Part shown: positions 187 to 14,577 of the stretch, one piece after another | How positions within the stretch are numbered: the first letter of the stretch is position 1 | How the letters are laid out: each line of letters begins with the position of its first letter | From: Chromohalobacter beijerinckii | Lineage (GTDB): Bacteria; Pseudomonadota; Gammaproteobacteria; Pseudomonadales; Halomonadaceae | Length of the DNA: 64,000 bases | Assembly (NCBI RefSeq): GCF_023061185.1 | Contig: NZ_JAKGAK010000015.1 | Location: 1-64,000 of the forward strand | Direction of reading: 5' to 3' | Program-made: the position numbers and the translations under genes | The notes under the pieces: generated by a model | What the model was told of the DNA's origin: nothing | What the model saw: only the letters and a program-made list of their open reading frames with translations | Databases searched by the model: none

Positions 187-216
187 CACCAAAGCCCGCC
201 GAAGCGGGCTTTGGTG
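187..216 (-). terminator. Hairpin terminator downstream of the cold-shock gene
   Basis: A perfect 13-bp inverted repeat (CACCAAAGCCCGC and GCGGGCTTTGGTG) encloses the tetraloop CGAA. It lies 40 bp past the stop codon of the minus-strand cold-shock gene. The T-run after the stem on the minus strand is short (TTTCTG), so termination may be partial. Positions 1-186 hold no gene I can support. Confidence 0.65.
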
Positions 217-256
217 CTCGAAGCCTTGCGGCTCGACAGCGCGGGCTAACCCAGAG

Positions 257-870: not shown

Positions 871-2190
871 TTAGCCGAGCAACTGCGCGCGTGCGGCCGC
901 AAAGCCATCCCGTATCGAGCTATGCGCGACGCCGAGGCCTTCGACGCAGTAGCTGTTCAAAAACTGACGGCCGGCGAAAAGCCTGCGGTCGGTCTCGGTC
1001 AGTTTGGCTTGCTCGCAGACCCCGCCCCATTCACTGGCGATCGTGACGAGTTGGTTCTCGATGATGGCCTGGGCCTGTTCGTCATTGAGCAGGAAGTCCG
1101 GGGCGGCCGCGAGACAGCTGTGCAGCGTACTCATACGGTTTTCGCCCTTGATCAGCATCGCCTGCGTCGCCTCGTTGCCCGCTCGCCCCTGCGGGCAGAT
1201 GTCATAGGCCGGGGTCAACGAGAGCATCCTGCCGTCCCAGAACGCGGCATGGTTGCGGGCATGATCGTCCGTGTTGCCGCACAGGATATTGAAGACGATC
1301 CGAGCGTAGAGCTCTCGCAGCGTTGGCTTCGGGTCGGTGAAGCGGTGACGGATGACTTCGGCAAGGTCTTCGTAAGACGCATAGCGCACCATCATTTCGT
1401 CAAGGCCGAGCATCGTCAGCGCTGACACCATCGCTTTGCGCTGCCAGCCAGCCCCTGACTTGATGCGATCAAAGCGGTCGATGAGCAGCACATCCTTGCC
1501 GGCCGCCGCGGTCATCGAGACCGGGGCGACATCGAGCTCACATGCAGCCGCCAGCTTCATGGCGATAAATTCCGCCTTCACGACGCTGTAAATATCCGTG
1601 CTCGACGAGAACTTGGCGATCATTTTGCGATCGCCATGGTCGATCAGGGCCTTCGGGCGGGCGCCGCCGATCGAAGTGCCATGGTTCAACGCCTGGTCGA
1701 GGGCTGGCGTCAGCGGGACACCCTTCTCGATCCGTTCAGCCGCTTCCAGCAACTCTTCATAAGACGCCTCGGCCTTGAGGCGAGGCACGTATTCCGTGGC
1801 GGAATGCTGGAAGTCGAGGGCACCGATCCGGTCCGACCCCGATTCGAGCCAATAGGTGAGTTCGGAGATGTCGTCAGCTGCGGCACCACCAGTCTTGCCC
1901 CCCATCATACGATTGATGATCACCCGGCGCCCCCAGGCATCGGGCGAGGCGTCACGCAGGCAACTGGCCATCGACAGGCCAGCGGTCGGTTCGATTAAGC
2001 CGCGGCGCAGTGGCAGTTCGGGGCCATAGATCGGAATCGCACCATCGCGTGCCAGGTAGCTGGCGCCATAGTTGAAGCTGTAGCTATCGCCGTGCTGCGT
2101 GACGCGACCGGCCACCACGGGTTGTGTCTCTCCCGGCAACCAGATCCAGACATAGGCCTCTCGTGGCTGCGCCAGTCTAGAAGTCATCAT
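871..2190 (-). CDS. hipA: HipA-family serine/threonine kinase toxin
   Basis: This 439-residue protein has the HipA layout: an N-terminal couplet domain (residues 1-100, with DASPDAWGRR), a P-loop-like segment IGGARPKALI, and the kinase core with the catalytic loop NTDDHARNHA and the metal-binding DICPQG (HipA D-H-x-x-N and DxxP types). Known HipA proteins phosphorylate aminoacyl-tRNA synthetases such as GltX and induce dormancy. The gene overlaps hipB by 14 bp, so the two are translationally coupled and the antitoxin is made first. All catalytic motifs look intact, so the toxin is probably active. Its exact target is not deducible from sequence. Confidence 0.92.
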   Translation of the reverse strand: MMTSRLAQPREAYVWIWLPGETQPVVAGRVTQHGDSYSFNYGASYLARDGAIPIYGPELPLRRGLIEPTAGLSMASCLRDASPDAWGRRVIINRMMGGKTGGAAADDISELTYWLESGSDRIGALDFQHSATEYVPRLKAEASYEELLEAAERIEKGVPLTPALDQALNHGTSIGGARPKALIDHGDRKMIAKFSSSTDIYSVVKAEFIAMKLAAACELDVAPVSMTAAAGKDVLLIDRFDRIKSGAGWQRKAMVSALTMLGLDEMMVRYASYEDLAEVIRHRFTDPKPTLRELYARIVFNILCGNTDDHARNHAAFWDGRMLSLTPAYDICPQGRAGNEATQAMLIKGENRMSTLHSCLAAAPDFLLNDEQAQAIIENQLVTIASEWGGVCEQAKLTETDRRLFAGRQFLNSYCVEGLGVAHSSIRDGFAAARAQLLG

Positions 2191-2515
2191 CGACCTCCTG
2201 CCTGCTCGGGCGAACCCGCTTCGGCAGCAGCGTCAGTTTTTCCTCGAGATGGGCGTTATGCATCGCACCTGCCCGGTCATCGACATCGAACAACCGCACG
2301 CCAACGAGTGTGGCGACCTCGAAGACGATGCCGATCTCGGTGCCGGCTTCGCCATTTTCGATGTTGCGGAGGGTCTTACGCGAGATGCCTGCGCGTTCAG
2401 ACAGTTCGGCAGCGGTGAGCTCCCGCTCCAAACGGCCAGCCTTGATCAGCTTGCCGAGGATCGAGAGTGTCTGCTTGGTGACACGGGAGTAGCTGCGCGG
2501 CCGTTTCATTGCCAT
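2177..2515 (-). CDS. hipB: HipB-like HTH antitoxin
   Basis: This 112-residue protein has a Cro/C1-type helix-turn-helix at about residues 30-75 (LTAAELSERAGISRKTLRNI). It lies immediately upstream of hipA and overlaps it, the standard antitoxin-first order. Known HipB dimers bind HipA and repress the operon through paired palindromes. Two such palindromes lie just upstream (2555-2574 and 2607-2624). The C-terminus is acidic (QEVDDDF), consistent with a degradable tail, though that is inference. An internal ATG at 2509 is an alternative start. Confidence 0.88.
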   Translation of the reverse strand: MAMKRPRSYSRVTKQTLSILGKLIKAGRLERELTAAELSERAGISRKTLRNIENGEAGTEIGIVFEVATLVGVRLFDVDDRAGAMHNAHLEEKLTLLPKRVRPSRQEVDDDF

Positions 2516-2554
2516 CTCGTCAGATTAGGTATTTAAAGACTCATTAGGCGTCTT

Positions 2555-2574
2555 GTGAGTATTAAAGTACTCAC
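2555..2574. promoter_or_regulatory. hip operator 1
   Basis: This is a perfect inverted repeat GTGAGTA-N6-TACTCAC, 40 bp upstream of hipB. Its core TGRGTA-N6-TACYCA is shared with a second palindrome 51 bp away. Paired palindromes with a short spacer match the architecture of HipB-type operators. Confidence 0.6.
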
Positions 2575-2606
2575 TATGGTGCGGTCTGCATGAGATAGCA
2601 AGATAA

Positions 2607-2624
2607 TGGGTATTTTATTACCCA
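2607..2624. promoter_or_regulatory. hip operator 2
   Basis: This is a perfect inverted repeat TGGGTA-N6-TACCCA with the same arm design as operator 1. The centres are 51 bp apart, close to five helical turns, as expected for cooperative HipBA binding. Confidence 0.55.
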
Positions 2625-3001
2625 CAAGGCTATGAGATGAAACTTTAAATGCTCATTACTCAGGCAGTTGGTGATCACCACCTGGATCAATCGTGCTATG
2701 GGCGCCGTCGGCACCTCGCTCAGTGGGCTCGCCCTCGCGCTGCAGATGCCTGTCGATATGCTATCCATCGTCGCCGGCCTCATGGCGCTATCGGTCATGG
2801 GCGAGCAGGCATGGCTGTGTCAGCCAGCCCATGCACGCGGCATGGCCTGCCCCGATTCGTGAACTCGCCACACTCCGTGGTACTGAGCGCCGCCGACCGA
2901 GCGACGCTTGGTGCTACCATTGGGGTTCGAGGTTGTCGGTCAGCATAGTGGGCAGCAACGTAGCGTCTAGGGGTTGCCTCGACTCCAAACCGCCCGATGC
3001 C
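2625..3001. other. Degenerate intergenic stretch upstream of hipBA
   Basis: There is no gene I can support here. A short hydrophobic plus-strand frame (2668-2862, reading ALQMPVDMLSIVAGLMAL in its middle) might be a scrap of a membrane protein, but it lacks a ribosome binding site and any recognisable family. The stretch lies between the hip operators and a clear pseudogene and is probably recombination debris. Confidence 0.4.
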
Positions 3002-3172
3002 TCAATCGAACAGCAAATCACCCTCGATCGGACTCGCGGCGTTGATAAGGGAATTGGCGGTGAGCTTGGGCACGCCGTAGACCTCAACGCGCTTGCCATG
3101 CACCACGCGGATTTTCCGCGCCAGCAGATCGAAGTCGCCATCGCCGGGAGGCGAGCGTTGGCTGGCGTGCAT
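3002..3172 (-). pseudogene. C-terminal fragment of a NYN-domain (LabA/DUF88-like) protein
   Basis: The minus strand reads GDGDFDLLARKIRVVHGKRV, then EVYGVPKLTANSLI, and ends with EGDLLFD and a stop at 3002. This is the typical end of LabA/DUF88-like NYN proteins, a PIN-related fold often linked to RNA cleavage, where GDGDFD supplies acidic metal-binding residues. Only about 50 residues remain. The N-terminal half with the first catalytic aspartates is missing, so the fragment is not functional as it stands. It indicates deletion or rearrangement between hipBA and the marR cluster. Positions 3173-3313 hold nothing recognisable. Confidence 0.6.
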
Positions 3173-3313
3173 GGTACGTGATAACCGACGCGCCCGGCTT
3201 CAGAGAAGAGGCCTGATGGTCCGCTGGATTTCATCAACGAAACGGTCACCATTCAGCGACTTACTGGCAGAGGCTCACGCACATTGAGGCCGAGGCATTC
3301 AGGCTTCACTGGG

Positions 3314-3760
3314 CTACGCCGCTGTCTTTTGGATCATTTGGCGCAGACAAGCGACGATGTCGCTATTTGCTGGCTGACTGCCGGCTTCGTCAAGAGCGGC
3401 CTCAAGAAAAGCATCGTAGTCCTTGCCAGCTTCTTCTTGAATTTGCCTTCCTCGACTAGTGATTACGGTATAGACCCCTCGCTTATCATTAGGACACATG
3501 TCACGGATCGTATACTGGTTGCGTTCCATACGTTCAACCAAGCGCGTAACGGAACTCTGGTTCAGCCCTAGGCGGTTGGCCAACTCTTGCATGCGAAGCT
3601 CTGAGTCCGGCGCCGTAGATAACAATTGCAGGGCGCGATACTCGGTCAGGCCGAGTCCATGCTCACGTTGCAGTGCCTTCGCCACCTGATTTTCGACCGA
3701 CTCGAAAACATTTCTCACCTGCTGCCAAACTACCGATTTCGGTGGCATCTCTGTTCTCAT
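3314..3760 (-). CDS. MarR-family transcriptional regulator
   Basis: This 148-residue winged-helix regulator has the MarR recognition helix region at about residues 55-85 (MQELANRLGLNQSSVTRLVE) and the wing region DMCPNDKRGVYTVIT. It is divergent from the biosynthetic cluster starting at 4139 and separated from it by a 378-bp region full of related TTGxAxATGCAT-like motifs. MarR proteins usually repress a divergent operon until a small phenolic or pathway-related ligand binds, so this is the likely cluster regulator. The downstream ATG at 3748 is an alternative start. Confidence 0.88.
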   Translation of the reverse strand: MRTEMPPKSVVWQQVRNVFESVENQVAKALQREHGLGLTEYRALQLLSTAPDSELRMQELANRLGLNQSSVTRLVERMERNQYTIRDMCPNDKRGVYTVITSRGRQIQEEAGKDYDAFLEAALDEAGSQPANSDIVACLRQMIQKTAA

Positions 3761-4138
3761 CCTAAGCTGTCAAAGTTGTCGCTATCCAATTACGCAATTA
3801 CTTGTACATGCATACACTATCTGAATTCCAGCCTTCCGGCCAGTCTGAGGCTCTGTACTTGTAAGCGATTTACCACACTCCACGTGCGTAATAGCTGAAT
3901 TTTTCTTCTACCACAGCCTTGTCGCCCGGCACCACATAGCGCAGATACGCGATATTTTTCAATTAGATATGGTTAATGTTTATTCATACCACCATGCTTT
4001 GAAAGGTAGCTGATTTACAAAACTCCATGTATTTGCATGCGCAAGCATATTGACAGCGACACACCCCTGCCCTACCTTAATAATACTTGCACATACAAAT
4101 ACATGTGCCATCAGCTTACAATTCCACGGGGCACGCAC
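3761..4138. promoter_or_regulatory. Divergent marR/biosynthetic-cluster control region
   Basis: This AT-rich 378-bp region contains related purine/pyrimidine-alternating elements: TTGTACATGCATACA (3802-3816), TTGCATGCGCAAGC (about 4032-4045), and a perfect inverted repeat GCACAT-N8-ATGTGC at 4089-4108. A similar TTGTATGCACAAC lies near 8247, just before the DsbA-like gene. They are good candidates for binding sites of the divergent MarR protein. No coding region is supported: the frame running into the adenylation gene from 4037 lacks a suitable ribosome binding site. Confidence 0.45.
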
Positions 4139-5644
4139 ATGAAATTGTCTCTACTACTCACCTCGCTTGCGGACAGTGCTACTCATTATCCCAATGACAT
4201 CGCCTTTCTCACGGATGCGGCCGCTTGGAGCTACGAGCAGCTATGGGCTCGAGTCTCACAATATGAGTCGGTTCTGGCCAAGATCGCCTTGCCTGATGGT
4301 GTTGTTGTAGCAATCACCGCATACAAAACCGTAGACACCATTGCGCTGATGCTGGCGCTGGGCAAGCAGGGCCACACGCCGTTGGTGGTTTCGCCCGGAT
4401 TGGGCACCTCGGTCAAACCCACGATGTATGCTACCGCTGGCGTATATTGTGAGCTGGCTGCGGACAGTGCTCTGGGCAGGCCTGAGGTTTCTTTCGAAGT
4501 GCCGACTGTACTGCAAGTCAATTCGATTCCTAGCGCCTATACAACCACAACCTCCCCACTCATGCTGACCACATCTGGCTCCACGGGCACTCCCAAAGTA
4601 GTCGAACTCACTACCGAGGGGATAAACGCCTTCGTCGGCTGGGGTGCCGAGTATTTCCAGTTGACCCGTGGCAGCCGAGTCCTCAGCTACGCCCCGCTTA
4701 ATTTCGACCTGAGTCTGCTCGAAATTTGGGCACCCCTGCTACAGGGCGCCACGGTGATCTTGGTCGATACCGCTCGAGCAACCCAGGCCGACTACCTTCA
4801 CGGCTTGGTCCGTGAACAGCGCCCCGATCTTCTTCAAGCCGTACCAATGTTTTATAACCTGCTCTGTCCGGAAGATGACTCTTACATGCTGAGCATGGAT
4901 AGCGTACGGCATGTCGTGTTCACCGGTGACACCATGCCCAAAGGCCTGTGTAAACGCGTCGCCACTGCTTTCCCTCAGGCAACATTCCATAACATCTATG
5001 GATGTACCGAAACCAACGACAGCTTCGTCTATTCCGGCGATGCCCTAGCGATCGTACAACACGAGCGGTTACCACTAGGTGGCCCAATCTCAGGCGTCCA
5101 CTATCGCATCGTAACCGAGGAAGGAATTGAACTAGCCGGTGCCGGCGAAGGCGAACTGCATACCTCCACACCGTTTCTCGCTCATGGCTATACCGATCCC
5201 AGTTTGACGGCCAGCGTCTTTTACCGTGAGCCGGACGGTTATCGCATTTATTACCGGACTGGTGATCGGGTCGCACGCGACGAACAGGGCCAATTGACCC
5301 TTCTCGGCCGCAAAGACTGCATTGTCAAGGTCCGTGGCGTGCGTACCAACCTACAGGACATCGAGCAAGTCTTGGCCAAGATGCCTATCGTCAAGAATGC
5401 CGTTGTAATCCCAGTGAATGACGAGCTGGCCGGTGTCGTCCTGCATGCAGTAATCGAACTCACTCAGAGCCAAAAACTGGATGGCATGGCCATGCGGTTG
5501 TTCTGTGCCCAGTATTTGCCACAAACCTCCGTTCCACGCCGCTTCCATCTGCATGAAAGCCCGTTACCTACGACCTCGACCGGCAAACCGGATCGAAAAA
5601 CCATCGCTCTATCCATCCAGCCCAAAGAGAGTGAACCCGCATGA
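4139..5644 (+). CDS. Free-standing NRPS-type adenylation enzyme
   Basis: This 501-residue AMP-forming ligase should activate an amino or other carboxylic acid as adenylate and load it on the carrier protein encoded next. The core motifs are in order: A3 LTTSGSTGTPK (143-153), A4 NFDLSLLEIW with Asp190, A5 YGCTE (287-291), A7 YRTGD, A8 LLGRKDCIVKVRG, and A10 with Lys483 in TGKPDRK. It has no fused carrier or condensation domain, like the PigI/PltF stand-alone enzymes. A by-eye alignment to PheA gives the pocket residues D-L-L-Q-V-T-I-D-S plus K; Asp236-like D-L-L resembles proline-activating enzymes, while the later Asp could favour a basic side chain. The substrate remains unknown. The start was chosen by family length. 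Its stop overlaps the next ATG (ATGA). Confidence 0.85.
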   Translation: MKLSLLLTSLADSATHYPNDIAFLTDAAAWSYEQLWARVSQYESVLAKIALPDGVVVAITAYKTVDTIALMLALGKQGHTPLVVSPGLGTSVKPTMYATAGVYCELAADSALGRPEVSFEVPTVLQVNSIPSAYTTTTSPLMLTTSGSTGTPKVVELTTEGINAFVGWGAEYFQLTRGSRVLSYAPLNFDLSLLEIWAPLLQGATVILVDTARATQADYLHGLVREQRPDLLQAVPMFYNLLCPEDDSYMLSMDSVRHVVFTGDTMPKGLCKRVATAFPQATFHNIYGCTETNDSFVYSGDALAIVQHERLPLGGPISGVHYRIVTEEGIELAGAGEGELHTSTPFLAHGYTDPSLTASVFYREPDGYRIYYRTGDRVARDEQGQLTLLGRKDCIVKVRGVRTNLQDIEQVLAKMPIVKNAVVIPVNDELAGVVLHAVIELTQSQKLDGMAMRLFCAQYLPQTSVPRRFHLHESPLPTTSTGKPDRKTIALSIQPKESEPA

Positions 5645-5898
5645 TTCATGAACAGAACATCAAAACGTACATCTGTGAGGAACTCGCCCCAGATGTGGAT
5701 CCGGCCGCGTTGCCTACCGATGTCGACCTGCTGACTACCGGCGTTACCGACAGCCTTTCCCTGGTGCGCCTGATCGCCTGGATTGGCGAGGAGTATGACA
5801 TTCCGATCGCTGACATGGAGATCGCCCCTGAGGATTTCAGTTCGGTGGAGAAGGTCAACGCCTTTATCGAGCGCCATACGGTCTCCGGGGTCGCCTGA
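5641..5898 (+). CDS. Stand-alone acyl/peptidyl carrier protein
   Basis: This 85-residue carrier protein has the phosphopantetheine attachment motif GVTDSLSLVRL, with Ser38 as the expected modification site. It starts inside the stop codon of the adenylation gene, so translation is coupled and the pair probably forms a loading module. The protein is acidic, with four predicted helices, as usual for carriers. The cargo would be the amino acid activated by the upstream enzyme and then worked on by the dehydrogenase and transglutaminase-like domains downstream. Confidence 0.85.
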   Translation: MIHEQNIKTYICEELAPDVDPAALPTDVDLLTTGVTDSLSLVRLIAWIGEEYDIPIADMEIAPEDFSSVEKVNAFIERHTVSGVA

Positions 5899-5966
5899 GA
5901 CACGAGCTTCAGCAACGAAACTTGCAGTAACACCACCACAGCACTGATCACACAAGGAAGAGACTC

Positions 5967-6344
5967 ATGTTTTCACGCAAGCGCAACGACATCGCCGGTA
6001 TCCAGTGGGGCAACGGCACCAGCCATCGCATGCTAACCGAGAAGGACGGCATGGGCTTCACCGTGGCGCATACCGTCGTCAACGCAGGATCGGAGTCGCG
6101 CCTGCAGTACCGCCGTCATCTCGAGGCATGCTACTGCATTTCCGGTCGAGGCTGCGTGCTCTCAGCCAATGGTAGCGAAGAGCATATCCTCGAGCCGGGC
6201 TCCATCTATGTCCTGGATAAGCACGACCCACACGTCCTGAAGGCCGATGATGGCGAAGATATGCATCTGGTTAGCGTGTTTAACCCACCGCTCACCGGTA
6301 AAGAGCGCCACCAGTTGAGTGCCGACGGGTTCTCTCAATACTGA
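5967..6344 (+). CDS. Ectoine-synthase-like (EctC family) cupin
   Basis: This 125-residue single cupin matches EctC across its length (DGMGFTVAHTVVNAG, HLEACYCISGRG, IYVLDKHDPHVLKA, VFNPPLTGKERH). EctC closes the ring of N-acetyl-diaminobutyrate to ectoine with an iron cofactor. The three iron ligands I recall from the Paenibacillus EctC structure align as Glu53, Tyr81 and His89. Of the substrate-pocket residues, Tyr48, His51, Glu113 and His115 are kept, while the Trp becomes Gly17 and a Cys becomes Ser103. No ectA, ectB or ask_ect is adjacent. It therefore probably catalyses a related cyclodehydration on another substrate in this pathway. An AAGGAAG ribosome binding site precedes the ATG. Confidence 0.82.
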   Translation: MFSRKRNDIAGIQWGNGTSHRMLTEKDGMGFTVAHTVVNAGSESRLQYRRHLEACYCISGRGCVLSANGSEEHILEPGSIYVLDKHDPHVLKADDGEDMHLVSVFNPPLTGKERHQLSADGFSQY

Positions 6345-6384
6345 GCCGGGTCCGACTTTCAAGCTGCCATTGTAAGGAAGAAAC

Positions 6385-8235
6385 ATGCACCCCCAGGACA
6401 AACAGATCGCCAAACAGGCCCGTGCTTCGATCGATGCCATTGCACGTGCCCTGGATGCGGAATACCCCACCGGGAGCGAATTTCCCCGGGAAAAATGGCT
6501 GGCGGTGTCCAGTACCGGAGTCTTCCGGCGTGCCGCCAATGCCGAGTCCAAGCGTGACGCCATCTTGTCAACGATGACCGCGCTTGAGCGATTGGGCGAG
6601 GTCTGCAAGGATTCCGGCCTAACGTTCTCTGTCGCTACACACTTGGCCAGCACGATCACTGCCCTCGACAAGTTCGGAAGTCCCGAACTGAAGGCCCGGT
6701 ATATGGAGGAGCTGGTCGCAGGTCAATTGATTGGCGCCCACGCCATCAGCGAGCCCAATGCAGGGTCCGATGCGCTGAGCATGACCACCACCGCCCTCGA
6801 GGATGGTGATGACTTTATCATCAACGGGCATAAGGCCTTCGTGACTAACGGCTCGGTGGCCGATGTGATCGTGGTCTATGCCAAGACCAGTCAGGCGGCC
6901 ACTGCTGATTGCGTCTCCGCATTTCTGGTAGACACTCGCTCCTCTGGGGTACATCTCGGCCCCACCATGGAAAAGGTCGGCTTAAGCACCTCGCCGCTGT
7001 GTGAGCTTACGCTAGACAATTGCCGGATACCGAAGGAAAACATGGTCGGCCGCCGCGGCGCTGGGTTCTTCGTGCTCAGCCACGTGATGCAACGGGAGAT
7101 CCTCTACTCATTCATTATCAGCGTGGGAGAGATGCAGCGACGTTTGCAGCGTTGCGTGCGCTACGCCAACTCCCGGCGCCAGTTTGGCTCATCCATCGGT
7201 GCGTTCCAGTCCGTCGCCAATAAGACCGCCGACATGAAGATCCGTTATGAGTTAAGTCGGCAATGGTTGTATTACGTCGCCGAGCGCATGATCGCCAACA
7301 AGGACGTAACGACCGATGTTGCGATCGCCAAGGTCTTCGTCAGCGAAAATGCCCTGGCTACCTCCGTCGATGCCCTGCATATCCATGGGGGGTACGGCTA
7401 CATTGCCTCGAACGGCCTAGGTACCGAAGTTTGCAACGCCCTGGCAGGCCCAATCTACTCAGGCACGAACGAGATCCAGCGCGGACGCATCGCGGCCATG
7501 ATCGGGGTCAGTCAAAGTAAGACAAAGCCGACCGGGGTTAGCACGGATCAAGAAGTTGTTCGCCCGGAAACTCGCATCGTGCACCAGGTGGATATCGAGC
7601 GCACCCATAGCGAGTTGCTCGATTTCATGCATGACGATGTGCAGAACTTCGTGAGCGCGGCCCTGGGTGACGAGCCTTTAGACGAACGCGACACGGCTGT
7701 GAAGCTCTACTACGCCGTGCGCGACAAGATTGCCTACGAGGTATTCAATACCGACATCAGCAACACGGGGCTACGCGCCAGCAAGATCGTCAACGACCGT
7801 CGCGGTTTCTGTCTGCATAAAGCGTTGCTCTACGCTGCGGCTTGCCGATCGCAAGGCTTGCCATGTCGTCTGGTTGCAAGCCGCGTAACCAATCACATTG
7901 CCACACCGGAACTGCAGGACTTGGTAGGCGGTGATGTCTTCCTGCATTGGTACAACGAGGTCAAGGTGGGCGACGCTTGGCTGCAGGTCTCACCAGTATT
8001 CAACAAGCTGCTTTGCAAGCTGTATGGCATTGAGCCATTGGAATTCGACGGTTACAGCAGCGCAATTCACCAGCCTTTCAGCGGTGGTGCAGCGATGAAT
8101 TACCTCGATGACCCGGTGGTATTCACCAACCCACGCTATGCCGAGCTGATCGAGCTAGTGAATACCTATCACCCGAACATGGTCACGCCGGTGGGAAGGG
8201 TTCCGCAAGCCAAGTCCTCTAAAGCAGCTCTTTAA
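6385..8235 (+). CDS. Acyl-CoA dehydrogenase / transglutaminase-like fusion
   Basis: This 616-residue protein joins an FAD-dependent acyl-CoA dehydrogenase (about 1-375) to a transglutaminase-like domain (about 400-600). In the first part HAISEPNAGSD, the RRQFG segment and the IYSGTNEIQR end are typical. The usual catalytic Glu of YEGT is Ser359, but Glu238 aligns with the isovaleryl-CoA-dehydrogenase base, the position also used by prolyl-carrier dehydrogenases such as PigA. In the second part Cys476 (RRGFCLHKALL) and His521 (HWYNEV) fit the Cys-His pair, while the third residue, normally Asp, is Ser536. I infer oxidation of a carrier-bound aminoacyl group by the first domain and amide formation or release by the second, as for AdmF of andrimid biosynthesis. 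The strong AAGGAAG site supports the start. Confidence 0.85.
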   Translation: MHPQDKQIAKQARASIDAIARALDAEYPTGSEFPREKWLAVSSTGVFRRAANAESKRDAILSTMTALERLGEVCKDSGLTFSVATHLASTITALDKFGSPELKARYMEELVAGQLIGAHAISEPNAGSDALSMTTTALEDGDDFIINGHKAFVTNGSVADVIVVYAKTSQAATADCVSAFLVDTRSSGVHLGPTMEKVGLSTSPLCELTLDNCRIPKENMVGRRGAGFFVLSHVMQREILYSFIISVGEMQRRLQRCVRYANSRRQFGSSIGAFQSVANKTADMKIRYELSRQWLYYVAERMIANKDVTTDVAIAKVFVSENALATSVDALHIHGGYGYIASNGLGTEVCNALAGPIYSGTNEIQRGRIAAMIGVSQSKTKPTGVSTDQEVVRPETRIVHQVDIERTHSELLDFMHDDVQNFVSAALGDEPLDERDTAVKLYYAVRDKIAYEVFNTDISNTGLRASKIVNDRRGFCLHKALLYAAACRSQGLPCRLVASRVTNHIATPELQDLVGGDVFLHWYNEVKVGDAWLQVSPVFNKLLCKLYGIEPLEFDGYSSAIHQPFSGGAAMNYLDDPVVFTNPRYAELIELVNTYHPNMVTPVGRVPQAKSSKAAL

Positions 8236-8271
8236 TGTTCAGTATTTGTATGCACAACCATAGGTGAGAGT

Positions 8272-8922
8272 ATGACCCAGCAAATCATCATCTACACCGA
8301 TTACGTCTGCCCTTATTGCCTACTGGCGGAGCATATTGTCGAGGACGTGATCCAGGGACAGGACGTAGAGATCAATTGGCGTCCCTACGAGCTGCGGCCC
8401 GAGCCGGTGCCCACCCTGCGCGTTGAAGACCCGTATTTGCCACAGGTCTGGAAACAATCGGTTTACCCAATGGCCGAGCGTCTCGGCGTTCCGATCAAAC
8501 TGCCAGCTATTTCACCCCAGCCACGCACCGACAAGGCCTTCGAAGTTTTCGCGATGGCGGATGAGCAAGGGCTTGGCCACACATTTTCGATGGCAGCGCT
8601 GAAAGCGTTCTTCCAGGAAGAAATGGATATCGGCAACCCGGAGATTCTGGCCGATTTGGGAGCCGAGGTGGGCCTCGAGCGCGAGTCCGTACTGAACGTA
8701 CTGGCCAAGGGTACGTACCGGGAGCGTCACCGCGAGGCCCTGCGTCATGCCCGGGAGGACATGGTCATCACGTCCGTACCCACCATTGTGGTGGGCAAGC
8801 AGGTGTTCCGTGGCGTGCCGTCACCAGTAGAACTACGCCGGGCCCTCGACCAGGTCACGACCGAGACCGATCACGAGCAGCACCAGCCTGATGCCAAGGC
8901 CGCACACAACGCCGCACGCTAG
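8272..8922 (+). CDS. DsbA/FrnE-family dithiol oxidoreductase
   Basis: This 216-residue thioredoxin-fold protein has the active-site CPYC near residue 14 (VCPYCLLAE) and the cis-proline loop SVPTIVVG. It lacks a signal peptide, so it acts in the cytoplasm like FrnE and 2-hydroxychromene-2-carboxylate isomerase relatives, which occur in polyketide and other secondary-metabolite clusters. It follows the fusion gene by 36 bp, with an AGGTGAG site, and a TTGTATGCACAA motif lies in the gap, so it may have its own promoter. Its role here, oxidation or isomerisation of an intermediate, is inference. The last 25 residues are a hydrophilic tail. Confidence 0.85.
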   Translation: MTQQIIIYTDYVCPYCLLAEHIVEDVIQGQDVEINWRPYELRPEPVPTLRVEDPYLPQVWKQSVYPMAERLGVPIKLPAISPQPRTDKAFEVFAMADEQGLGHTFSMAALKAFFQEEMDIGNPEILADLGAEVGLERESVLNVLAKGTYRERHREALRHAREDMVITSVPTIVVGKQVFRGVPSPVELRRALDQVTTETDHEQHQPDAKAAHNAAR

Positions 8923-8988
8923 GCCCACGACAACGGGGCCAAACCCAACGTTCAAATAGAATGTTCAACAACCGTAGGAGTAAACATC

Positions 8989-9312
8989 ATGATCAGCTGG
9001 CTATACCTCGGCGTCGCCGTTCTTTTTGAAATCGCCGTCGCCTTCTCAGCAGGAAACGCACAGGGATTCACCCGCCTATGGTGGACGATCGCAACGCTTG
9101 TGAGCGGGGCCATTGCCACCTTCTTCCTCAGCCTCGCGCTTCTCGAGTTCGACGTCGGCGTGGGCTACTCCATCTGGACCTCCGTTGCCGGGGTCGGAAT
9201 CGTCATCCTGGGTGCGGTGTTCTTCCAGGAACGGCTCAACCTGAGAAAGCTCTCGGGCATTGCCATGGTCATTGGCGGTGTCATCGGGCTTCGGCTAAGT
9301 GGCGCAGCATAA
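8989..9312 (+). CDS. Small multidrug resistance (SMR) transporter subunit 1
   Basis: This 107-residue protein has four transmembrane helices and the membrane-embedded Glu of SMR proteins near residue 14 (LFEIAVAFSAG). The helix 3 and 4 motifs GVGYSIWTSVAGVG and LRKLSGIAMVIGGVIGL are typical. A second, different SMR gene follows 67 bp later, so the two probably work as a heterodimer (EbrAB/YkkCD style) exchanging protons for a cationic or polar product. Its place inside the cluster suggests export of the pathway product or self-protection. An AGGAG site lies before the ATG. Confidence 0.9.
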   Translation: MISWLYLGVAVLFEIAVAFSAGNAQGFTRLWWTIATLVSGAIATFFLSLALLEFDVGVGYSIWTSVAGVGIVILGAVFFQERLNLRKLSGIAMVIGGVIGLRLSGAA

Positions 9313-9379
9313 AGATTAATCAAGCAGTTACCGCAGTAGCGGTACCGAAGACATCAGCACTAGACCAAAGGAAATCGAC

Positions 9380-9772
9380 ATGACTAATACAACGTCAAAC
9401 CAAGCTAACAACGGGCGTGCATGGATCGCGCTACTGCTCGCCGGCGCCTTCGAAATCGTTTATGCCCTGAGTGTCGCCGGTAGCGAGGCCTTCACTGTTC
9501 TGAGCTGGTCGATCTCGGCGATCGTGTTCTTCCTGCTCACGCTGTACGCGCTCAGTGTTGCCCTGAAGACGATCGATGTGGGGATTGGCTACGCCGTATG
9601 GGCGGGCATCGGCGCGGTAGGTTCGGCTGTGTTCGGCAGCGTGCTGTTCGAACAATCCCTCACGCTGGGCCAGGCCTTTTGGCTGGCAGTCATCATCGCG
9701 GGCGTCATCTGGCTGAAACTGGCCAGTAGCGAGAAGCTGCAAGCCGACGAATCAGGCCTCACAGCATCTTGA
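9380..9772 (+). CDS. SMR transporter subunit 2
   Basis: This 130-residue four-helix SMR protein keeps the essential Glu (AFEIVYALSV, helix 1) and the GIGYAVWAGIGAVG segment of helix 3. Compared with the neighbouring subunit it has a longer hydrophilic N-terminus of about 12 residues and a C-terminal tail, features often seen in the larger partner of paired SMR systems. It is preceded by AAGGAAA and lies in the same operon. The pair likely exports one compound, and the substrate is unknown. Confidence 0.9.
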   Translation: MTNTTSNQANNGRAWIALLLAGAFEIVYALSVAGSEAFTVLSWSISAIVFFLLTLYALSVALKTIDVGIGYAVWAGIGAVGSAVFGSVLFEQSLTLGQAFWLAVIIAGVIWLKLASSEKLQADESGLTAS

Positions 9773-9850
9773 AAGATGCGCAATCACGCCCGGAGGGGCA
9801 AGCCGCCGTCATCCGCTTGCCCTTTCAGAACCACTCCATCGGAGACATTG

Positions 9851-10333
9851 ATGTCCACTAGCCCAACTGATCGCTTCTCGCAGCTCATGGATGATGTTGT
9901 TGCCTACTCCACTGAGCATGTCCGTAGTGGCGGCATACCCTTCACGGCCTTTGTCGTTGATGCCTCCGGAACGGTTCTGGGGCGTGGCGTAAACCGCGTT
10001 CTTGAACATCACGACCCGACCGCGCATGCGGAGGTAGAGGCAATCAGAGACGCGTGTCGTAACGTCGGCACCAGCCAATTGCGGGGAAAAACGCTCTTGG
10101 CATCAGGAGAGCCCTGCGCCATGTGCTACCTGAACGCACTCTTCGCAGATATCGACGAGGTGATCTATGCAGTCGATCGGGACAGTGCCGCCGAAGCGGG
10201 CTTCGATTACCGAGGTTCGTACCAACTGTTGGCACATTTCCCCGACCAGTGGCCCATGAAGGTACACAAGCACGCCACCACTCAAGCCCTAGAACCGTTC
10301 AACCTTTGGAGAAGAAAAAGGAGCTCCCTGTGA
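9851..10333 (+). CDS. Cytidine-deaminase-fold nucleoside/guanine deaminase
   Basis: This 160-residue zinc enzyme has the two deaminase motifs: HAEVEAIRDA, with the zinc His and the catalytic Glu, and PCAMCYLNA, with the two zinc cysteines. The family includes guanine deaminase, tRNA adenosine deaminase and pathway-specific aminohydrolases. Length and motif spacing fit the guanine-deaminase/TadA-like group, but the placement in a biosynthetic operon suggests deamination of a pathway intermediate such as an amidine or cyclic imine; that is inference. The ATG at 9851 has GGAGA upstream. The stop overlaps the GTG start of the next gene. Confidence 0.85.
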   Translation: MSTSPTDRFSQLMDDVVAYSTEHVRSGGIPFTAFVVDASGTVLGRGVNRVLEHHDPTAHAEVEAIRDACRNVGTSQLRGKTLLASGEPCAMCYLNALFADIDEVIYAVDRDSAAEAGFDYRGSYQLLAHFPDQWPMKVHKHATTQALEPFNLWRRKRSSL

Positions 10334-11145
10334 ATATCCCGATGAATCCGGCCCAGGCCGGTAACAATCCTGCCGCCCTGTTCCGCCCCGATGGATGGAA
10401 CCGTGCGATCCGCATTGGCACTGTGGTTCCGCATGCCGATGTTGGGCCGGAAGCCGAACTTCAGGCGATGGCCACCGATGACATCACCATCCATGGCAGC
10501 CGCCTGTATTTCTCAGCCATGCGAGCTGGCGGTGAAATGGATGAAAAAATCCCGCATGCTCCAGTGGCCTCGTTTGCTGAGCCGCCATATGTCGATGAAG
10601 CAGTAGAAAGTCTGGCCGCGTCGCCGCTGGATGTGGTGGGCCTGGCTTTCACCAGCTCAGCCTACAAGCACGGGCCAGACGGTGAACGTGCCCTTATCGA
10701 GCGGCTGCGTCCCCGGGCTCGCGAACTTCCGCTTGTCTCGACTTGCCTATCCGCAGAGCGAGCTTTGGCCAAACTGGGGACCAAGAGGCTAGCGATCGTC
10801 AACCCACCGTGGTTCGACGCCAACCTGGATAGACTGGGGGCACGTTACTTCGAGGAAGCGGGGTTCCGAGTGGTGCACCATGCCCCATGTGGGCTACCCA
10901 GTGGTCAGAAGTACATCACCCCGCAAAGCCTATATGACTGGATCGCAAGGATAGTCAACGAATCGGATGCAGACGCCGTCTTTGTCGGTGGCAACGGCCA
11001 ACGCTCAGTGGGCATCATCGATGCCGTAGAAAAGACCCTCGGTATATCAATGCTTACCGGTAACCAAGTCATACTCTGGGACGCCCTGCGTTCCATTAGT
11101 GCCAAAGTGAACATTGAAGGATATGGCAGGCTGTTCCACGCGTAG
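10330..11145 (+). CDS. Asp/Glu racemase-superfamily (maleate isomerase-like) protein lacking catalytic cysteines
   Basis: This 271-residue protein aligns with maleate cis-trans isomerase and arylmalonate decarboxylase (LAFTSSAYKHG, LAIVNPPWFDANLDRLGARY, and a C-terminal NQVILWDALR). These enzymes use one or two cysteines, in ACTS-type and SCTN-type loops. Here the first loop reads FTSS and the second VGGNGQR, so both are absent. It may be an altered enzyme or a binding protein. The GTG at 10330 is chosen because AGGAG lies 6 bp before it and it overlaps the upstream stop; the ATG at 10342 is the alternative. It is the last gene of the cluster, and no clear terminator follows. Confidence 0.78.
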   Translation: MNIPMNPAQAGNNPAALFRPDGWNRAIRIGTVVPHADVGPEAELQAMATDDITIHGSRLYFSAMRAGGEMDEKIPHAPVASFAEPPYVDEAVESLAASPLDVVGLAFTSSAYKHGPDGERALIERLRPRARELPLVSTCLSAERALAKLGTKRLAIVNPPWFDANLDRLGARYFEEAGFRVVHHAPCGLPSGQKYITPQSLYDWIARIVNESDADAVFVGGNGQRSVGIIDAVEKTLGISMLTGNQVILWDALRSISAKVNIEGYGRLFHA

Positions 11146-11205
11146 CTCGTACAGGACTCGATACAACGAAGAGCCCGTCTGTTTGAACCGTCCAACAATT
11201 GTGGC

Positions 11206-11735
11206 TCAGTTCAAAGCTTGCCATCGATCACCTCAAGGCCAGATGAACGCTCGGCCACGGATCTTACTCACGCGTGGTGCGGGAAGGATCGGCGTGCCAG
11301 CCTGGCGGTCATCATCGACTGCTGCACGCGTGAGATCCTCGGTTGGCGGTTATCGGACAATGGCAGCAGCAAGACAGCGGAGGCTGGCTGCCCTGGAAGA
11401 AGCACTGATTTATCGACTGGGGGCACTGGGGCGCGTTCAGCAACTGCTAGCACTTCGCTCTGATAACGGGCTCGTCTTTAGCAGTCGCCACGACACGGGC
11501 ACGGGGTGAAGGCCTATGGCCTCACGCAGGCGTTCACGACACCGTATACACCGGAACAGAACGGGCTCGTGGAACGCTTCTTCCGCTCTTTGAAGGAGGA
11601 GTGCATCTGACTTCACCGTTTCGAATCGTTGGGCCAAGCCAGGGTCGTGATCAATCGCTGGATCCGGTATTACAACGAAGAACGGCACATCAGTCTCTGG
11701 ACTACGTGGCACCCCGAGCATACCCAGGGTTGCAG
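11206..11735 (+). pseudogene. Decayed IS3-family transposase (OrfB)
   Basis: The integrase core can be followed through three frames: ATDLTHAWCGKDRRASLAVI and CCTREILGW, then LRSDNGLVFSSR, then TPYTPEQNGLVERFFRSLKE and a partner segment NRWIRYYNEERH. All three DDE residues are recognisable, but there are frameshifts near 11385 and 11500 and an in-frame TGA at about 11610 (a Trp position in relatives). OrfA and the terminal repeats are not identifiable. This dead element marks the join between the biosynthetic cluster and the AT-rich methyltransferase module. Confidence 0.8.
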
Positions 11736-11810
11736 CAACCAAGGGGCATACAGAGCCTCAAAAAAGTCGTTTTCATTTCCACCGACCTTCTCAATCGCAA
11801 CTTCAAAAAC

Positions 11811-11841
11811 AGGTGCCTACTTCCGGCACCTTCTATTTTAT
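11811..11841. terminator. Bidirectional hairpin terminator
   Basis: The arms AGGTGCC (11811-11817) and GGCACCT (11825-11831) are followed on the plus strand by TTCTATTTTAT and on the minus strand by TGTTTTTG. It lies about 60 bp past the end of the minus-strand methyltransferase operon and probably ends that transcript. Confidence 0.55.
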
Positions 11842-11890
11842 CAGGAAGATGAATTAAGAGCTCCCTCTTACCTATTTTAAAAATAAGCCA

Positions 11891-13045
11891 TCAAAAAAGA
11901 TCAACTTGATCTTTTAGAGTTGAGTCAAGGATATTGAAAAGCTTAGCCTCCCCACTTGTGCCCGGAGGAAATGTCTCAATATTAAAATCAGAATCGACCA
12001 TCTCAACCTTATCGAAGATATTAAAAAACTCTTCAACACCAGGAATCCTCAAGTCACTCATGTAATATGGAACAACCTCTTTATATGCTTTCCTAAGAAA
12101 GCGCATCAAGGCCTTTACACCATTGGACTTAGGAAGAACATTACCTTTTTTGTCAAAATCAGACCAAGACTCCGGCCATTTCCTCTCTACAGCCCTAAAA
12201 TAATTTATTATAATAGCCACAATCTTATGATCTTCTTCGGCGATCCAGAAAGGCCTAAATATATACTTCTCCTTAAGCTTTGTTTGCGAATAATTATTCG
12301 CAAACATTCTTTTCAGGAATTGATTCCTATCTTCCCAAGGGTCATCCGCAATAAAATCAATAATTGACTCAACAATAACCGCCTGCGTTAGAAGCTCTTT
12401 GCTTCTACCAGGGGTCGCAGTCCCAAGCCTTTTTATTCTTTTGAAGAAAGGACTATCTTCATACGAATCCAACGCCACAGCTATTTCATGACATGACTTC
12501 TGGGGACTTCTGGAAGTTTCGTACTCAAAGAGATCATAAACAAGACTTCTATTTACTTTTGTTTGCGCCAAATTTACAGTGGCAAAAATATTTGCTTGCG
12601 TAGGCATATCAGCACCAACAAATATTGTCACTGGAAGATCAAAAACTTCACGCGAAAAATTTTTAATCCCCTCAACTCGATGCTGACCATCCAAAATTTT
12701 TGCCACCGACTCTAGCCCATTACCAGCACCATCAAATATTCTTAAAACCCGTTCATCCTCGAACCACTCTATATTATCCTCATCAATTGCAATGACAATT
12801 GAAGTCGGAAATGTAGCATCAACATTTTCAACGTATTTGACTATATCTTTTATTCTCTTTTTATCAATCTTTCTCTGAATCCCCATATAACGATCAAGTT
12901 TTCTTTCATTACCCTCTTCAATTGCTCTAACATCAGCATAAGAAATTTCAGAAAGGAGGCCCCATGGAATAACTGCTTGGTAAAAATCCCCTACAGGCTG
13001 CCTGACCTTAATTGCAGAAACTTTTACTTCACTAATATCACTCAT
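11891..13045 (-). CDS. DGQHR-domain protein (DndB/DpdB-like)
   Basis: This 384-residue protein carries the DGQHR signature (LDGQHRVEGIKNF, about residues 119-131) that names the family including the DNA-phosphorothioation regulator DndB and related proteins of DNA-modification islands; the fold resembles ParB-like nuclease or binding domains. An upstream TTG overlaps the previous stop, but the ATG at 13045 with GGAGG before it is the likelier start. It is the last gene of an AT-rich three-gene operon with a membrane protein and a DNA adenine methyltransferase. I infer a DNA-processing or defence role. No dnd genes are in the window. Confidence 0.8.
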   Translation of the reverse strand: MSDISEVKVSAIKVRQPVGDFYQAVIPWGLLSEISYADVRAIEEGNERKLDRYMGIQRKIDKKRIKDIVKYVENVDATFPTSIVIAIDEDNIEWFEDERVLRIFDGAGNGLESVAKILDGQHRVEGIKNFSREVFDLPVTIFVGADMPTQANIFATVNLAQTKVNRSLVYDLFEYETSRSPQKSCHEIAVALDSYEDSPFFKRIKRLGTATPGRSKELLTQAVIVESIIDFIADDPWEDRNQFLKRMFANNYSQTKLKEKYIFRPFWIAEEDHKIVAIIINYFRAVERKWPESWSDFDKKGNVLPKSNGVKALMRFLRKAYKEVVPYYMSDLRIPGVEEFFNIFDKVEMVDSDFNIETFPPGTSGEAKLFNILDSTLKDQVDLF

Positions 13046-13047
13046 GA

Positions 13048-13599
13048 TCAATACTCCTCCCTCTTAACCTTTTCCAAAACATCATTACTTTTTGCCTTAG
13101 AAAAATTTTGTTCTTGCAGCGATCGGTAATATACGATTGAAAAATACCATAAGGAAAGAGACACCACATATAAAGACAGGGAGACCATATCCGCAAAATC
13201 ATTTTCAAAAAACTGAAGACTTCGGTACCTGAGGAAAAGATGAAGCCCTACCATCAAACATGCAAAAATAAGAATAAAATAAAGAGAGTGCCAAACCATA
13301 TTTGCATCTTTATACCATGCGAGAAAAGTGTATATCACCGGAGCCAAGAAAGCAGATATGTATATAAATATCTCACCTGGACGACCTTCCTCCGCTAAAA
13401 AACCAACCAAACCCACTGATTCTTTCTGCAAAGAAAGATCAAATGCAAGAATCAAGAAAGGCAAGTTACCCACTATGTAAGTAACAAGAAATTCAGCCAT
13501 CGACAGCCCATAAGTTTTAAGAGTTGGACTATAATCTCTCAGATTCCAAACAGCAAACGCAACAAATAAAAAATATGCAAAAAAACCTTCGAGCAGCAT
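13048..13599 (-). CDS. Hypothetical membrane protein of the methyltransferase-DGQHR operon
   Basis: This 183-residue protein has about five predicted membrane segments (roughly residues 3-20, 35-54, 77-95, 105-124 and 140-159) and a charged cytoplasmic tail ending KVKREEY. I do not recognise a family. Its stop overlaps the region of the DGQHR gene start, and it begins 32 bp after the methyltransferase, so the three are one operon. Base composition is as AT-rich as its neighbours. In defence modules, small membrane proteins of this kind often act as effectors, but nothing in the sequence proves this. Confidence 0.7.
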   Translation of the reverse strand: MLLEGFFAYFLFVAFAVWNLRDYSPTLKTYGLSMAEFLVTYIVGNLPFLILAFDLSLQKESVGLVGFLAEEGRPGEIFIYISAFLAPVIYTFLAWYKDANMVWHSLYFILIFACLMVGLHLFLRYRSLQFFENDFADMVSLSLYVVSLSLWYFSIVYYRSLQEQNFSKAKSNDVLEKVKREEY

Positions 13600-13631
13600 A
13601 CCTATTTACCTCATCTCTAAAACATGCTCTA

Positions 13632-14453
13632 TCAGCTAATGAGCAACTCGGTCGTCCTTGACCGGAAGTCCTTATTAGCTGAAATAACGCTTGCTCTCTC
13701 AATTTCTTGTATATCAAAAAACCCTTCATATAAGGACAATATTGAGGAATGATTAGCGTTTGTCAACATTATCTTAACCCCCCTTTCTTTGGCACGCCTC
13801 AGTGAATAAAACAACCTTTCCTGATCATCCCATGAAAATATTTTCTCATTATATTTAACAAAGCCATTCAAGTTATGCTTAACTGTATACGGGGGATCTA
13901 CAAACAAAAAGTCTCCCTCAACAGCCAAATCTACAACCTTCTCAAAATCTACATTTAAAATATTTGCATTCGACAAAATCTCGGATATCTCTAGAAACCC
14001 ATCTTCTAGTAGAACATTACTCTTAGTCCCAATGGGAACATTAAACTTCCCACTAAGATTAACTCTAAAGAGCCCATTCCAACATGTTCTATTTAGATAG
14101 ATAAACTGCGCCGCCCTTTCGATCTTGTCTTCAAGGGAAAACGCTCTCATTTCATAATAGTAATTTTTTGAATGCTTATGCTGATGCTTTTTCAGCAACT
14201 CAAAAACAGACTGCCAGTCATCTCTTAATGCAACATATGTGTCGATCAGCCACGAATTGGAATCTGAAATCACCGCATCTTCTGGCTTGAGGTGAAAAAA
14301 AACCGCTCCACTTCCCAAGAATGGCTCTATATACCTACCTGAAAAATCTGGAAAAAGATTCCCATGCTTGTGCACTAGCCAACGTTTCCCCCCCGCCCAC
14401 TTCAGAAAAGGCGCTATTGATCCTGAGCAAGCACTACTAACATTGCTATTCAT
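13632..14453 (-). CDS. Dam-family (D12 class) DNA adenine methyltransferase
   Basis: This 273-residue enzyme has the class D12 N6-adenine methyltransferase motifs: FLKWAGGKRWLV (AdoMet-binding motif I, about residues 17-28), YIEPFLGSGAVFFHL, and the catalytic FVDPPYTVKHNLNGF. It should methylate adenine in a short DNA site, perhaps GATC, but specificity is not visible. Its GC content is far below that of guaA next door, and it lies in an operon with a membrane protein and a DGQHR protein, so it is accessory and not the housekeeping Dam. A GAGGCG site precedes the ATG. No restriction endonuclease gene is evident beside it. Confidence 0.9.
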   Translation of the reverse strand: MNSNVSSACSGSIAPFLKWAGGKRWLVHKHGNLFPDFSGRYIEPFLGSGAVFFHLKPEDAVISDSNSWLIDTYVALRDDWQSVFELLKKHQHKHSKNYYYEMRAFSLEDKIERAAQFIYLNRTCWNGLFRVNLSGKFNVPIGTKSNVLLEDGFLEISEILSNANILNVDFEKVVDLAVEGDFLFVDPPYTVKHNLNGFVKYNEKIFSWDDQERLFYSLRRAKERGVKIMLTNANHSSILSLYEGFFDIQEIERASVISANKDFRSRTTELLIS

Positions 14454-14523
14454 AACGCCTCAATAAAGCTTAAAACACATCGAGAAAACTAACAATAAAT
14501 AACATACACATATGGTTAAGTCT

Positions 14524-14547
14524 ATAAAAACCCGCGCGGTAGCGGGT
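14524..14547 (-). terminator. guaA terminator
   Basis: On the minus strand ACCCGC-N6-GCGGGT is followed by TTTTTATAG, a standard intrinsic terminator about 30 bp after the guaA stop. Confidence 0.8.
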
Positions 14548-14577
14548 CTTAGTTACTGCAGTTGCGACAGCTAAACC

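What the first reader, a model, noticed from the sequence alone, without database searches (positions are those of the whole stretch)
4139..11145. Compact, apparently undescribed carrier-protein-based biosynthetic cluster
Seen: nine same-strand genes with overlaps or short gaps, divergent from a marR gene: adenylation enzyme, carrier protein, EctC-like cupin, dehydrogenase/transglutaminase-like fusion, CPYC oxidoreductase, two SMR transporters, a deaminase and a racemase-fold protein. Known: A + PCP + acyl-CoA dehydrogenase is the trio that makes pyrrolyl-PCP (PigI/PigG/PigA, PltF/PltL/PltE); AdmF shows that transglutaminase homologues make amide bonds; EctC makes a cyclic amidine. Inference: an activated amino acid is oxidised on the carrier, cyclised and released or joined as an amide, then exported by the SMR pair. 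I know of no described pathway with this set.
Basis: partly seen in the sequence, partly recalled or inferred. Interest (0 to 1): 0.88.

Follow-up and report, generated by a model that had tools for sequence, protein, structure and literature searches.

The report
Aminopyrrole toxin cluster with immunity cassette
This gene cluster in a salt-loving bacterium looks like a way to turn glutamine into a small toxic aminopyrrole, using the first steps of a known antibiotic pathway (showdomycin), together with a set of self-protection genes that some related bacteria keep even after losing the production genes.

Summary
The nine genes and the divergent marR are real and form one conserved unit. Of 88 loci examined, 39 carry the full 11-component set, in Gammaproteobacteria, Alphaproteobacteria and Actinomycetota. 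The first half is not undescribed. Adenylation enzyme, carrier protein, EctC-like cyclase, prolyl-PCP-dehydrogenase-like enzyme and transglutaminase-fold hydrolase fit the steps given for showdomycin's aminopyrrole (L-Gln to 2-amino-1-pyrroline-5-carboxylate to the pyrrole acid; review PMC8724604, passages). The adenylation pocket is nearly invariant between window-type and showdomycin-like loci. The second half differs: no C-ribosylation genes, but marR, a FrnE-like CPYC protein, two SMR transporters, a guanine-deaminase-like enzyme and a maleate-isomerase/AMDase-fold protein without the AMDase cysteine. Three congeneric genomes lack exactly the five core functions yet keep marR-dsbA-SMR-SMR-deaminase intact under purifying selection, while the racemase-fold gene is broken or cut short. 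Four further genomes of the family hold the cassette without the core. I read the cassette as self-immunity and the racemase-fold gene as biosynthetic. The product is unknown; I propose a non-ribosylated, cationic aminopyrrole. New variant of a known kind.

The parts
3314..3760 (-). marR regulator, divergent; kept in core-less relatives
   Evidence: MarR 8.2e-11; dN/dS 0.06-0.09 among three core-less strains
3802..3815 (.). operator-like site next to the marR start (TTGTACATGCATAC)
   Evidence: 4 mismatches to the pattern used
4026..4105 (.). region upstream of A with two operator-like inverted repeats (arms 4026-4048 and 4083-4105) around a TTGACA box seen by eye at 4050-4055
   Evidence: repeat I1; same layout in Vibrio and in core-less relatives, by eye
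4139..5644 (+). stand-alone adenylation enzyme, pocket code DLLAVTIDS
5641..5898 (+). carrier protein, Ser38
   Evidence: Ser in 84/84
5967..6344 (+). EctC-like cyclase: iron ligands kept, Asn38 of true EctC lost
6385..8235 (+). fusion: prolyl-PCP-dehydrogenase-like ACAD (about aa 1-376) and transglutaminase-fold domain (about 385-616), read as thioester hydrolase
8242..8257 (.). operator-like site upstream of dsbA
   Evidence: repeat I3
8272..8922 (+). FrnE/DsbA-like protein, CPYC; immunity cassette
   Evidence: CPYC 13 or CPFC 26 of 39
8989..9312 (+). SMR transporter subunit 1; immunity cassette
9380..9772 (+). SMR transporter subunit 2; immunity cassette
9776..10333 (+). guanine-deaminase-like zinc deaminase (start perhaps 9851); immunity cassette
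10330..11145 (+). maleate-isomerase/AMDase-fold protein without the AMDase cysteine; read as biosynthetic (possible decarboxylase)
   Evidence: broken, cut or absent in core-less strains

Best explanation
The locus makes and survives a small aminopyrrole. (1) The EctC-like enzyme closes L-glutamine to 2-amino-1-pyrroline-5-carboxylate. (2) The adenylation enzyme loads it on the carrier protein. (3) The ACAD half of the fusion takes off two hydrogens, giving 2-aminopyrrole-5-carbonyl-PCP. (4) The transglutaminase-fold half hydrolyses the thioester. (5) The racemase-fold protein acts on the free acid, most likely as a decarboxylase. (6) The SMR pair exports the cationic product. (7) MarR senses it; the deaminase and the CPYC protein protect the cytoplasm. 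Steps 1-4 rest on homology and on shared gene content with showdomycin-like clusters. The split into production and immunity rests on natural deletions in relatives. Step 5, the role of each cassette gene and the product are inference.
For: Same five functions in showdomycin-like loci with PsuG and HAD; SdmE/C/D chemistry in a review (passages). True EctC is reported to cyclise Gln (passages). Adenylation code close to DLL[GA]xT[VIL]DS shared by window-type, showdomycin-like and T-type loci, Asp at 330 in 82 of 84 readable codes. ACAD nearest solved protein is a prolyl-ACP dehydrogenase; its Glu is in 86/86. Iron ligands in 83/83 cyclases while Asn38 is lost in 83/83. An ectB-like/ectC pair lies elsewhere in the genome. 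Seven genomes of the family keep marR-dsbA-SMR-SMR-deaminase without the core; dN/dS among three of them 0.01-0.30. Operator-like palindromes in front of both units.
Against: No product is known. The sdm genes themselves were not fetched; the review passages give names and steps but do not name the oxidase or hydrolase. The racemase-fold protein lacks the AMDase Cys188, and its showdomycin-like counterpart is distant (29% to L026; 22-31%), so a shared role is weakly supported. The cassette may protect against other compounds. In 14 of the 23 family genomes whose context I read the DsbA homologue stands without the cassette. One T-type locus (L010) has no transglutaminase match, so the hydrolase is not universal. 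The operator pattern is absent near marR in 29 of 39 window-type loci.
Confidence: 0.63

Rival explanations
1. Deaminase and CPYC protein are tailoring enzymes of the pathway, for example deaminating the aminopyrrole on the way to a maleimide-like product, and core-less strains keep them for other reasons.
For: The review calls deamination and decarboxylation of the showdomycin intermediate non-enzymatic, so enzymes for them would fit; the deaminase gene lies beside the racemase-fold gene in the window.
Against: The deaminase is kept with marR, dsbA and both SMR genes in 7 genomes that lack the core, while the racemase-fold gene is absent, cut or broken there; in S. globosus it lies in a same-strand run with dsbA and the SMR genes, apart from the core.
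Confidence: 0.24
2. The transglutaminase-fold domain condenses the pyrrole acyl group with an amine, giving an amide.
Against: Hydrolysis is the step described after on-carrier oxidation in showdomycin, and the same domain sits in PsuG loci; I see no gene in the set that would supply an amine.
Confidence: 0.12
3. An ectoine-like compatible solute is made.
For: NCBIfam ectoine synthase score above cut-off.
Against: No ectA/ectB in the set; an ectB-like/ectC pair lies elsewhere in the genome; Asn38, a substrate contact, is lost in 83/83.
Confidence: 0.03
4. A C-ribosylated showdomycin is made with PsuG and HAD encoded elsewhere.
For: Hybrid loci with both modules exist (L032, L146).
Against: 38 of the 39 full window-type loci have no PsuG match in the stretch read. 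The rest of the window's genome was not searched for PsuG.
Confidence: 0.06

Closest known systems
Showdomycin (sdm) pathway of Streptomyces showdoensis, aminopyrrole part
   Same: Gln cyclase, A, PCP, oxidation and hydrolysis to the aminopyrrole acid (review PMC8724604, passages); showdomycin-like loci such as L006, L019 and L022 share all five core functions and a like adenylation pocket
   Different: No PsuG C-glycosynthase or HAD phosphatase; adds marR, FrnE-like protein, SMR pair and deaminase; ACAD and hydrolase fused in the window and in Vibrio
Ectoine synthase EctC (5onn, 5bxx)
   Same: Sequence family, iron ligands, Tyr52 and Thr40 equivalents in 83/83, Trp21 in 82/83
   Different: Asn38 replaced by Cys/Ala/Thr in 83/83; GNG insertion after the Trp in the seven rows aligned
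Prolyl-PCP dehydrogenases (4irn, PigA, RedW)
   Same: Best solved and NCBIfam matches, catalytic Glu kept (the role of that Glu is recalled)
   Different: 311 and 288 bits, below the PigA (500) and RedW (650) cut-offs; fused to a hydrolase domain; two rather than four hydrogens would be removed
Arylmalonate decarboxylase / maleate isomerase
   Same: Fold, Z 27-30 over 221-231 residues at 1.8-2.4 A
   Different: No Cys at the G74 or C188 places; 21-24% identity
Guanine deaminase GuaD (1wkq) and, by role, blasticidin S deaminase (recalled)
   Same: Best solved match, zinc motif HAE...PCxxC
   Different: Found with the SMR pair in 39 of 44 loci that have a deaminase match; activity untested

Membership tests
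Showdomycin-type aminopyrrole (APC) core | EctC-like Gln cyclase | tested here: met
   Present; match in 83 of 88 loci; iron ligands 83/83. Activity not tested
Showdomycin-type aminopyrrole (APC) core | A enzyme with the same pocket as in PsuG-bearing loci, plus PCP | tested here: met
   Codes shared between window-type and S-type loci; compared with showdomycin-like loci, not with sdm itself
Showdomycin-type aminopyrrole (APC) core | ACAD and a releasing hydrolase | tested here: inconclusive
   ACAD match in 86 and TG in 87 of 88 loci, but the review passages do not name the sdm oxidase or hydrolase and sdm was not fetched
Showdomycin biosynthesis proper | PsuG-like C-glycosynthase and HAD phosphatase | tested here: not met
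   No match at 1e-6 in window 1-15000 (hits further on were dropped by the script)
Ectoine synthase | Asn38 and ect operon context | tested here: not met
   Ala34 at that place; no ectAB here; ectB-like/ectC elsewhere
Prolyl-PCP dehydrogenase (PigA/RedW equivalogs) | NCBIfam cut-off | tested here: not met
   311 vs 500 and 288 vs 650 bits
Arylmalonate decarboxylase | Catalytic Cys188 | tested here: not met
   Gly in the aligned place
SMR exporter pair | Two Multi_Drug_Res proteins encoded side by side | tested here: met
   9.8e-18 and 4.8e-20
SMR exporter pair | Export of the cluster product | not testable with these tools
   No transport assay

The most novel reading that the evidence does not exclude
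A widespread, unnamed class of very small antibiotics: non-ribosylated 2-aminopyrroles made by the front end of showdomycin biosynthesis, finished by a new cysteine-less decarboxylase of the maleate-isomerase fold, and countered by a portable MarR-controlled immunity cassette in which a guanine-deaminase relative destroys the toxin. The same aminopyrrole would also feed C-ribosylation, a shadow tryptophan pathway and a TrpB-like branch in other loci.
Probability: 0.37. Interest if true: 0.82.

Novelty: new variant of a known kind. Interest (0 to 1): 0.64.

Why it matters
It ties a conserved orphan cluster to a concrete chemistry that can be tested with a few purified proteins, and it offers a natural experiment that separates production from immunity genes. 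It suggests that the aminopyrrole of showdomycin is a shared building block with several outlets, and that a deaminase plus an SMR pair can be a resistance unit that persists without its antibiotic.

Tried and rejected
Rejected: true ectoine synthesis; PsuG-type ribosylation in window 1-15000; an AMDase-type mechanism that needs Cys188 for the last gene; iso-maleimycin as relative (its cluster is LysW-based, passages of PMC12022981). The structure model of the last gene (mean pLDDT 89.8) only confirmed the maleate isomerase/AMDase fold and does not choose between functions. Alignment A4 contained one faulty reference and was not used.

Literature, openly licensed PMC papers only. (showdomycin, aminopyrrole carboxylate, ectoine synthase, two terms together): 0 papers. 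Searches held 1,785, 625 and 402 papers, of which I saw 20 rows each; some searches listed 1, 4 and 7. Nothing on this gene set stood in those titles and abstracts. One search held 39 papers (30 listed) and held 5; I read passages of PMC8724604, PMC12022981 and PMC13055916 only. The primary showdomycin papers named in the review's reference list (Palmu 2017, Ren 2021) are not held, so sdm gene roles come from passages of one review. (non-producers keeping immunity) was seen as a listing of 6 of 19.

Weak points kept in view: the MarR-box pattern at one mismatch or less lies within 450 bases of marR in 10 of 39 window-type loci (18 of all 39 hits; no shuffle control), and three gammaproteobacterial loci (L012-L014) have none there. 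The sigma-70 scan found 2 sites against 4.6 in shuffles and did not list the TTGACA box. Tree support values were not read. At the Asn38 place two relatives outside the genus have Cys (L135) and His (L136). Residue numbers of the adenylation code, the place of the usual transglutaminase Asp, the catalytic Glu of the ACAD, and blasticidin S deaminase are recalled. After this check I lowered the main confidence from 0.66 to 0.63 and the novel case from 0.40 to 0.37, because the racemase-fold proteins of showdomycin-like loci proved more distant from the window's (22-31%) than I had first written.
Full report
WHAT IS THERE. The proteins are a stand-alone adenylation enzyme, a carrier protein, an EctC-like cupin, an acyl-CoA-dehydrogenase/transglutaminase fusion, a CPYC thioredoxin-fold protein nearest to FrnE among solved proteins, two SMR proteins, a zinc deaminase nearest to guanine deaminase, and a protein of the maleate isomerase/arylmalonate decarboxylase fold. 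The genome belongs to Halomonadaceae: a genome of the same family (G104) has the contig of 235,533 bases that is named Modicisalibacter coralii.

CONSERVATION. A tblastn search of plasmids found the same set, same order, in Vibrio (68.8% for the fusion), and a rearranged full set, with ACAD and transglutaminase as two genes, in Streptomyces globosus. A scan of genome contigs with the transglutaminase domain gave 504 relatives, of which the best 80 were kept. Of 88 loci in all (window, 7 plasmid loci, 80 genome loci), 39 carry all five core and all six accessory components, among them Leisingera of the Alphaproteobacteria (L018). By type the 88 are 38 W (window type), 1 W plus PsuG, 15 S (PsuG), 1 S with SMR, 15 T (tryptophan-like genes), 4 with SMR only, 14 other. 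The sample leans towards relatives of the window. In 295 Streptomyces genomes the transglutaminase was found in 24 and the deaminase in 11, with both within 8 kb in 10 of those 11; the draw is centred on one genome that I knew to have the cluster, so 9 of 10 without it. The eleventh, G715, has A, carrier protein, marR, deaminase, dsbA, both SMR genes and a PsuG/HAD/MFS module with a showdomycin-like racemase-fold gene, but no EctC, ACAD or TG match in the stretch read, and no TG match in the genome at 1e-25.

THE CORE IS THE AMINOPYRROLE PART OF SHOWDOMYCIN. Passages of a review (PMC8724604) give the proposed steps: SdmE cyclises L-glutamine to 2-amino-1-pyrroline-5-carboxylate, SdmC activates it, SdmD carries it, oxidation and hydrolysis follow, then SdmA adds ribose and SdmB removes phosphate. 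The review calls the pathway incompletely understood. True EctC is reported to make the same cyclic amidine from glutamine as a side reaction (passages of PMC6344544 and PMC4795551). Burkholderia stagnalis and others carry the same five core genes followed by PsuG and HAD. The adenylation pocket (numbering recalled) reads DLLAVTIDS in the window. Of 85 sequences 84 are readable (L046 is misaligned); codes close to DLL[GA]xT[VIL]DS dominate in all types, with Asp at 330 in 82 of 84 and Asn in the other two. I take this as one substrate for all types, and the Asp as a partner for an amidine; both are inference.

CATALYTIC RESIDUES. The cupin keeps the three iron ligands in 83 of 83 sequences, but the position of EctC Asn38, which touches the substrate carboxylate, is Cys 37, Ala 29 or Thr 17. 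EctC proteins of nine genomes of the window's genus keep Asn; two relatives from other families have Cys and His. The window's own genome has an ectB-like gene followed by ectC elsewhere. The ACAD keeps its Glu in 86 of 86 and is closest to a prolyl-ACP dehydrogenase, yet scores below the PigA and RedW cut-offs. From the cyclic amidine only two hydrogens need be removed to reach the pyrrole, against four from proline. The transglutaminase domain keeps Cys and His in 87 of 87; the place where I expect the usual Asp, judged by eye, is Thr, Ser or Ala.

PRODUCTION AND IMMUNITY COME APART. The transglutaminase gene is in 2 of 250 sampled genomes of the family, and the fusion in 1 of 10 held genomes of the genus. 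Three other genomes of the genus (G053, G075, G085) keep marR, dsbA, both SMR genes and the deaminase, with the five core functions missing; the remaining six have no deaminase match. By eye the three share one junction, from just before the A start codon to near the end of the fusion gene. In them the last gene has a stop (G085) or is cut to 57 (G053) and 21 residues (G075). Four more family members (G125, G121, G003, G111) have the cassette without core or last gene; G125 keeps a 45-residue scrap of the A gene, so its loss looks separate. I read the context of 23 of the 37 family genomes with a DsbA match: 2 have cassette and core, 7 cassette without core, 14 DsbA without the cassette, two of these with a dissimilar SMR gene (35%) nearby. 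In 321 genomes of the class only 2 have such a DsbA, both with the core. Among the three core-less congeners dN/dS is 0.06-0.09 for marR, 0.01-0.06 and 0.06-0.10 for the SMR genes, 0.12-0.14 for the deaminase and 0.08-0.30 for dsbA. dS differs between genes of one pair of strains, so the locus is mosaic and the deletion may have spread by recombination.

REGULATION. Two operator-like inverted repeats lie around a TTGACA box upstream of A, and another copy lies before dsbA. By eye the layout is kept in core-less relatives and in Vibrio. A TTGCAyrTGCAA-like palindrome lies within 450 bases of marR in 10 of 39 window-type loci at one mismatch or less; of all 39 such hits in these loci 18 are there and 21 elsewhere. 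The evidence is suggestive for the gammaproteobacterial members and thin for the rest.

HOW IT MOST LIKELY WORKS. Shown by sequence: the gene set, its conservation, its residues, the natural deletions. Inferred from homology: glutamine to 2-aminopyrrole-5-carboxylate by the five core functions. Inferred from relatives: MarR, CPYC protein, SMR pair and deaminase form an immunity cassette against the product. Guesses: the last gene decarboxylates the acid, because it has the AMDase fold, decays when the core is lost, and has a distant counterpart in showdomycin-like loci (29% to L026; 22-31%); the product is a cationic aminopyrrole that the SMR pair exports and the deaminase inactivates. The last gene lacks the AMDase cysteine, but the 35 window-type and other copies aligned share invariant D37, E41, E43, R58, W161 and N245.

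NOVELTY. The core is known; the window's branch (no ribosylation, with the immunity cassette) was not found in the searches listed under Tried and rejected. W and S types interleave on a tree of the core from 81 loci, support values not read, so outlets seem to have been swapped on a shared front end.

Noticed in passing
L010:7694-12578; L052, L064, L071, L077, L086, L088: In T-type loci the aminopyrrole core sits beside TrpD-like (PF00591), TrpA-, TrpF- and TrpC-like genes, and in 6 of 15 a TrpB-like PLP enzyme lies next to the transglutaminase (in L086 on the other strand): a shadow tryptophan pathway that may build a pyrrolopyrrole or tryptophan analogue. A passage of PMC13055916 reports a trpF close to the showdomycin cluster.
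   Followed up: partly
L066:10649-12922 and ten other 'other' loci: 11 of 14 'other' loci have a TrpB-like PLP enzyme next to the transglutaminase, some with an EamA exporter or an ATP-grasp gene: perhaps aminopyrrolyl-alanine.
   Followed up: partly
L032:12-11456; L146:5533-14805: Hybrid loci hold window-type accessory genes and the PsuG/HAD/MFS module together.
   Followed up: partly
L009:14947-16128 and 23 other actinobacterial loci: A gene family whose L009 member is a DDE_5 transposase-like protein recurs near window-type and showdomycin-type clusters; mobile element or regulator is open.
   Followed up: no
window 3033-3147: A 115-base stretch occurs in more than one copy near the locus in two relatives; nature unknown.
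   Followed up: no
window 11160-11800: Broken IS3-like transposase pieces (judged by eye from the ORFs) follow the last gene, in keeping with horizontal gain.
   Followed up: no
L009:18836-19783 and 12 other loci: AfsA/ScbA-type butyrolactone genes near actinobacterial clusters.
   Followed up: no
L135: A genome of another family of the same order has a cluster-type EctC (Cys at the Asn38 place, WGNG motif), context not read.
   Followed up: no
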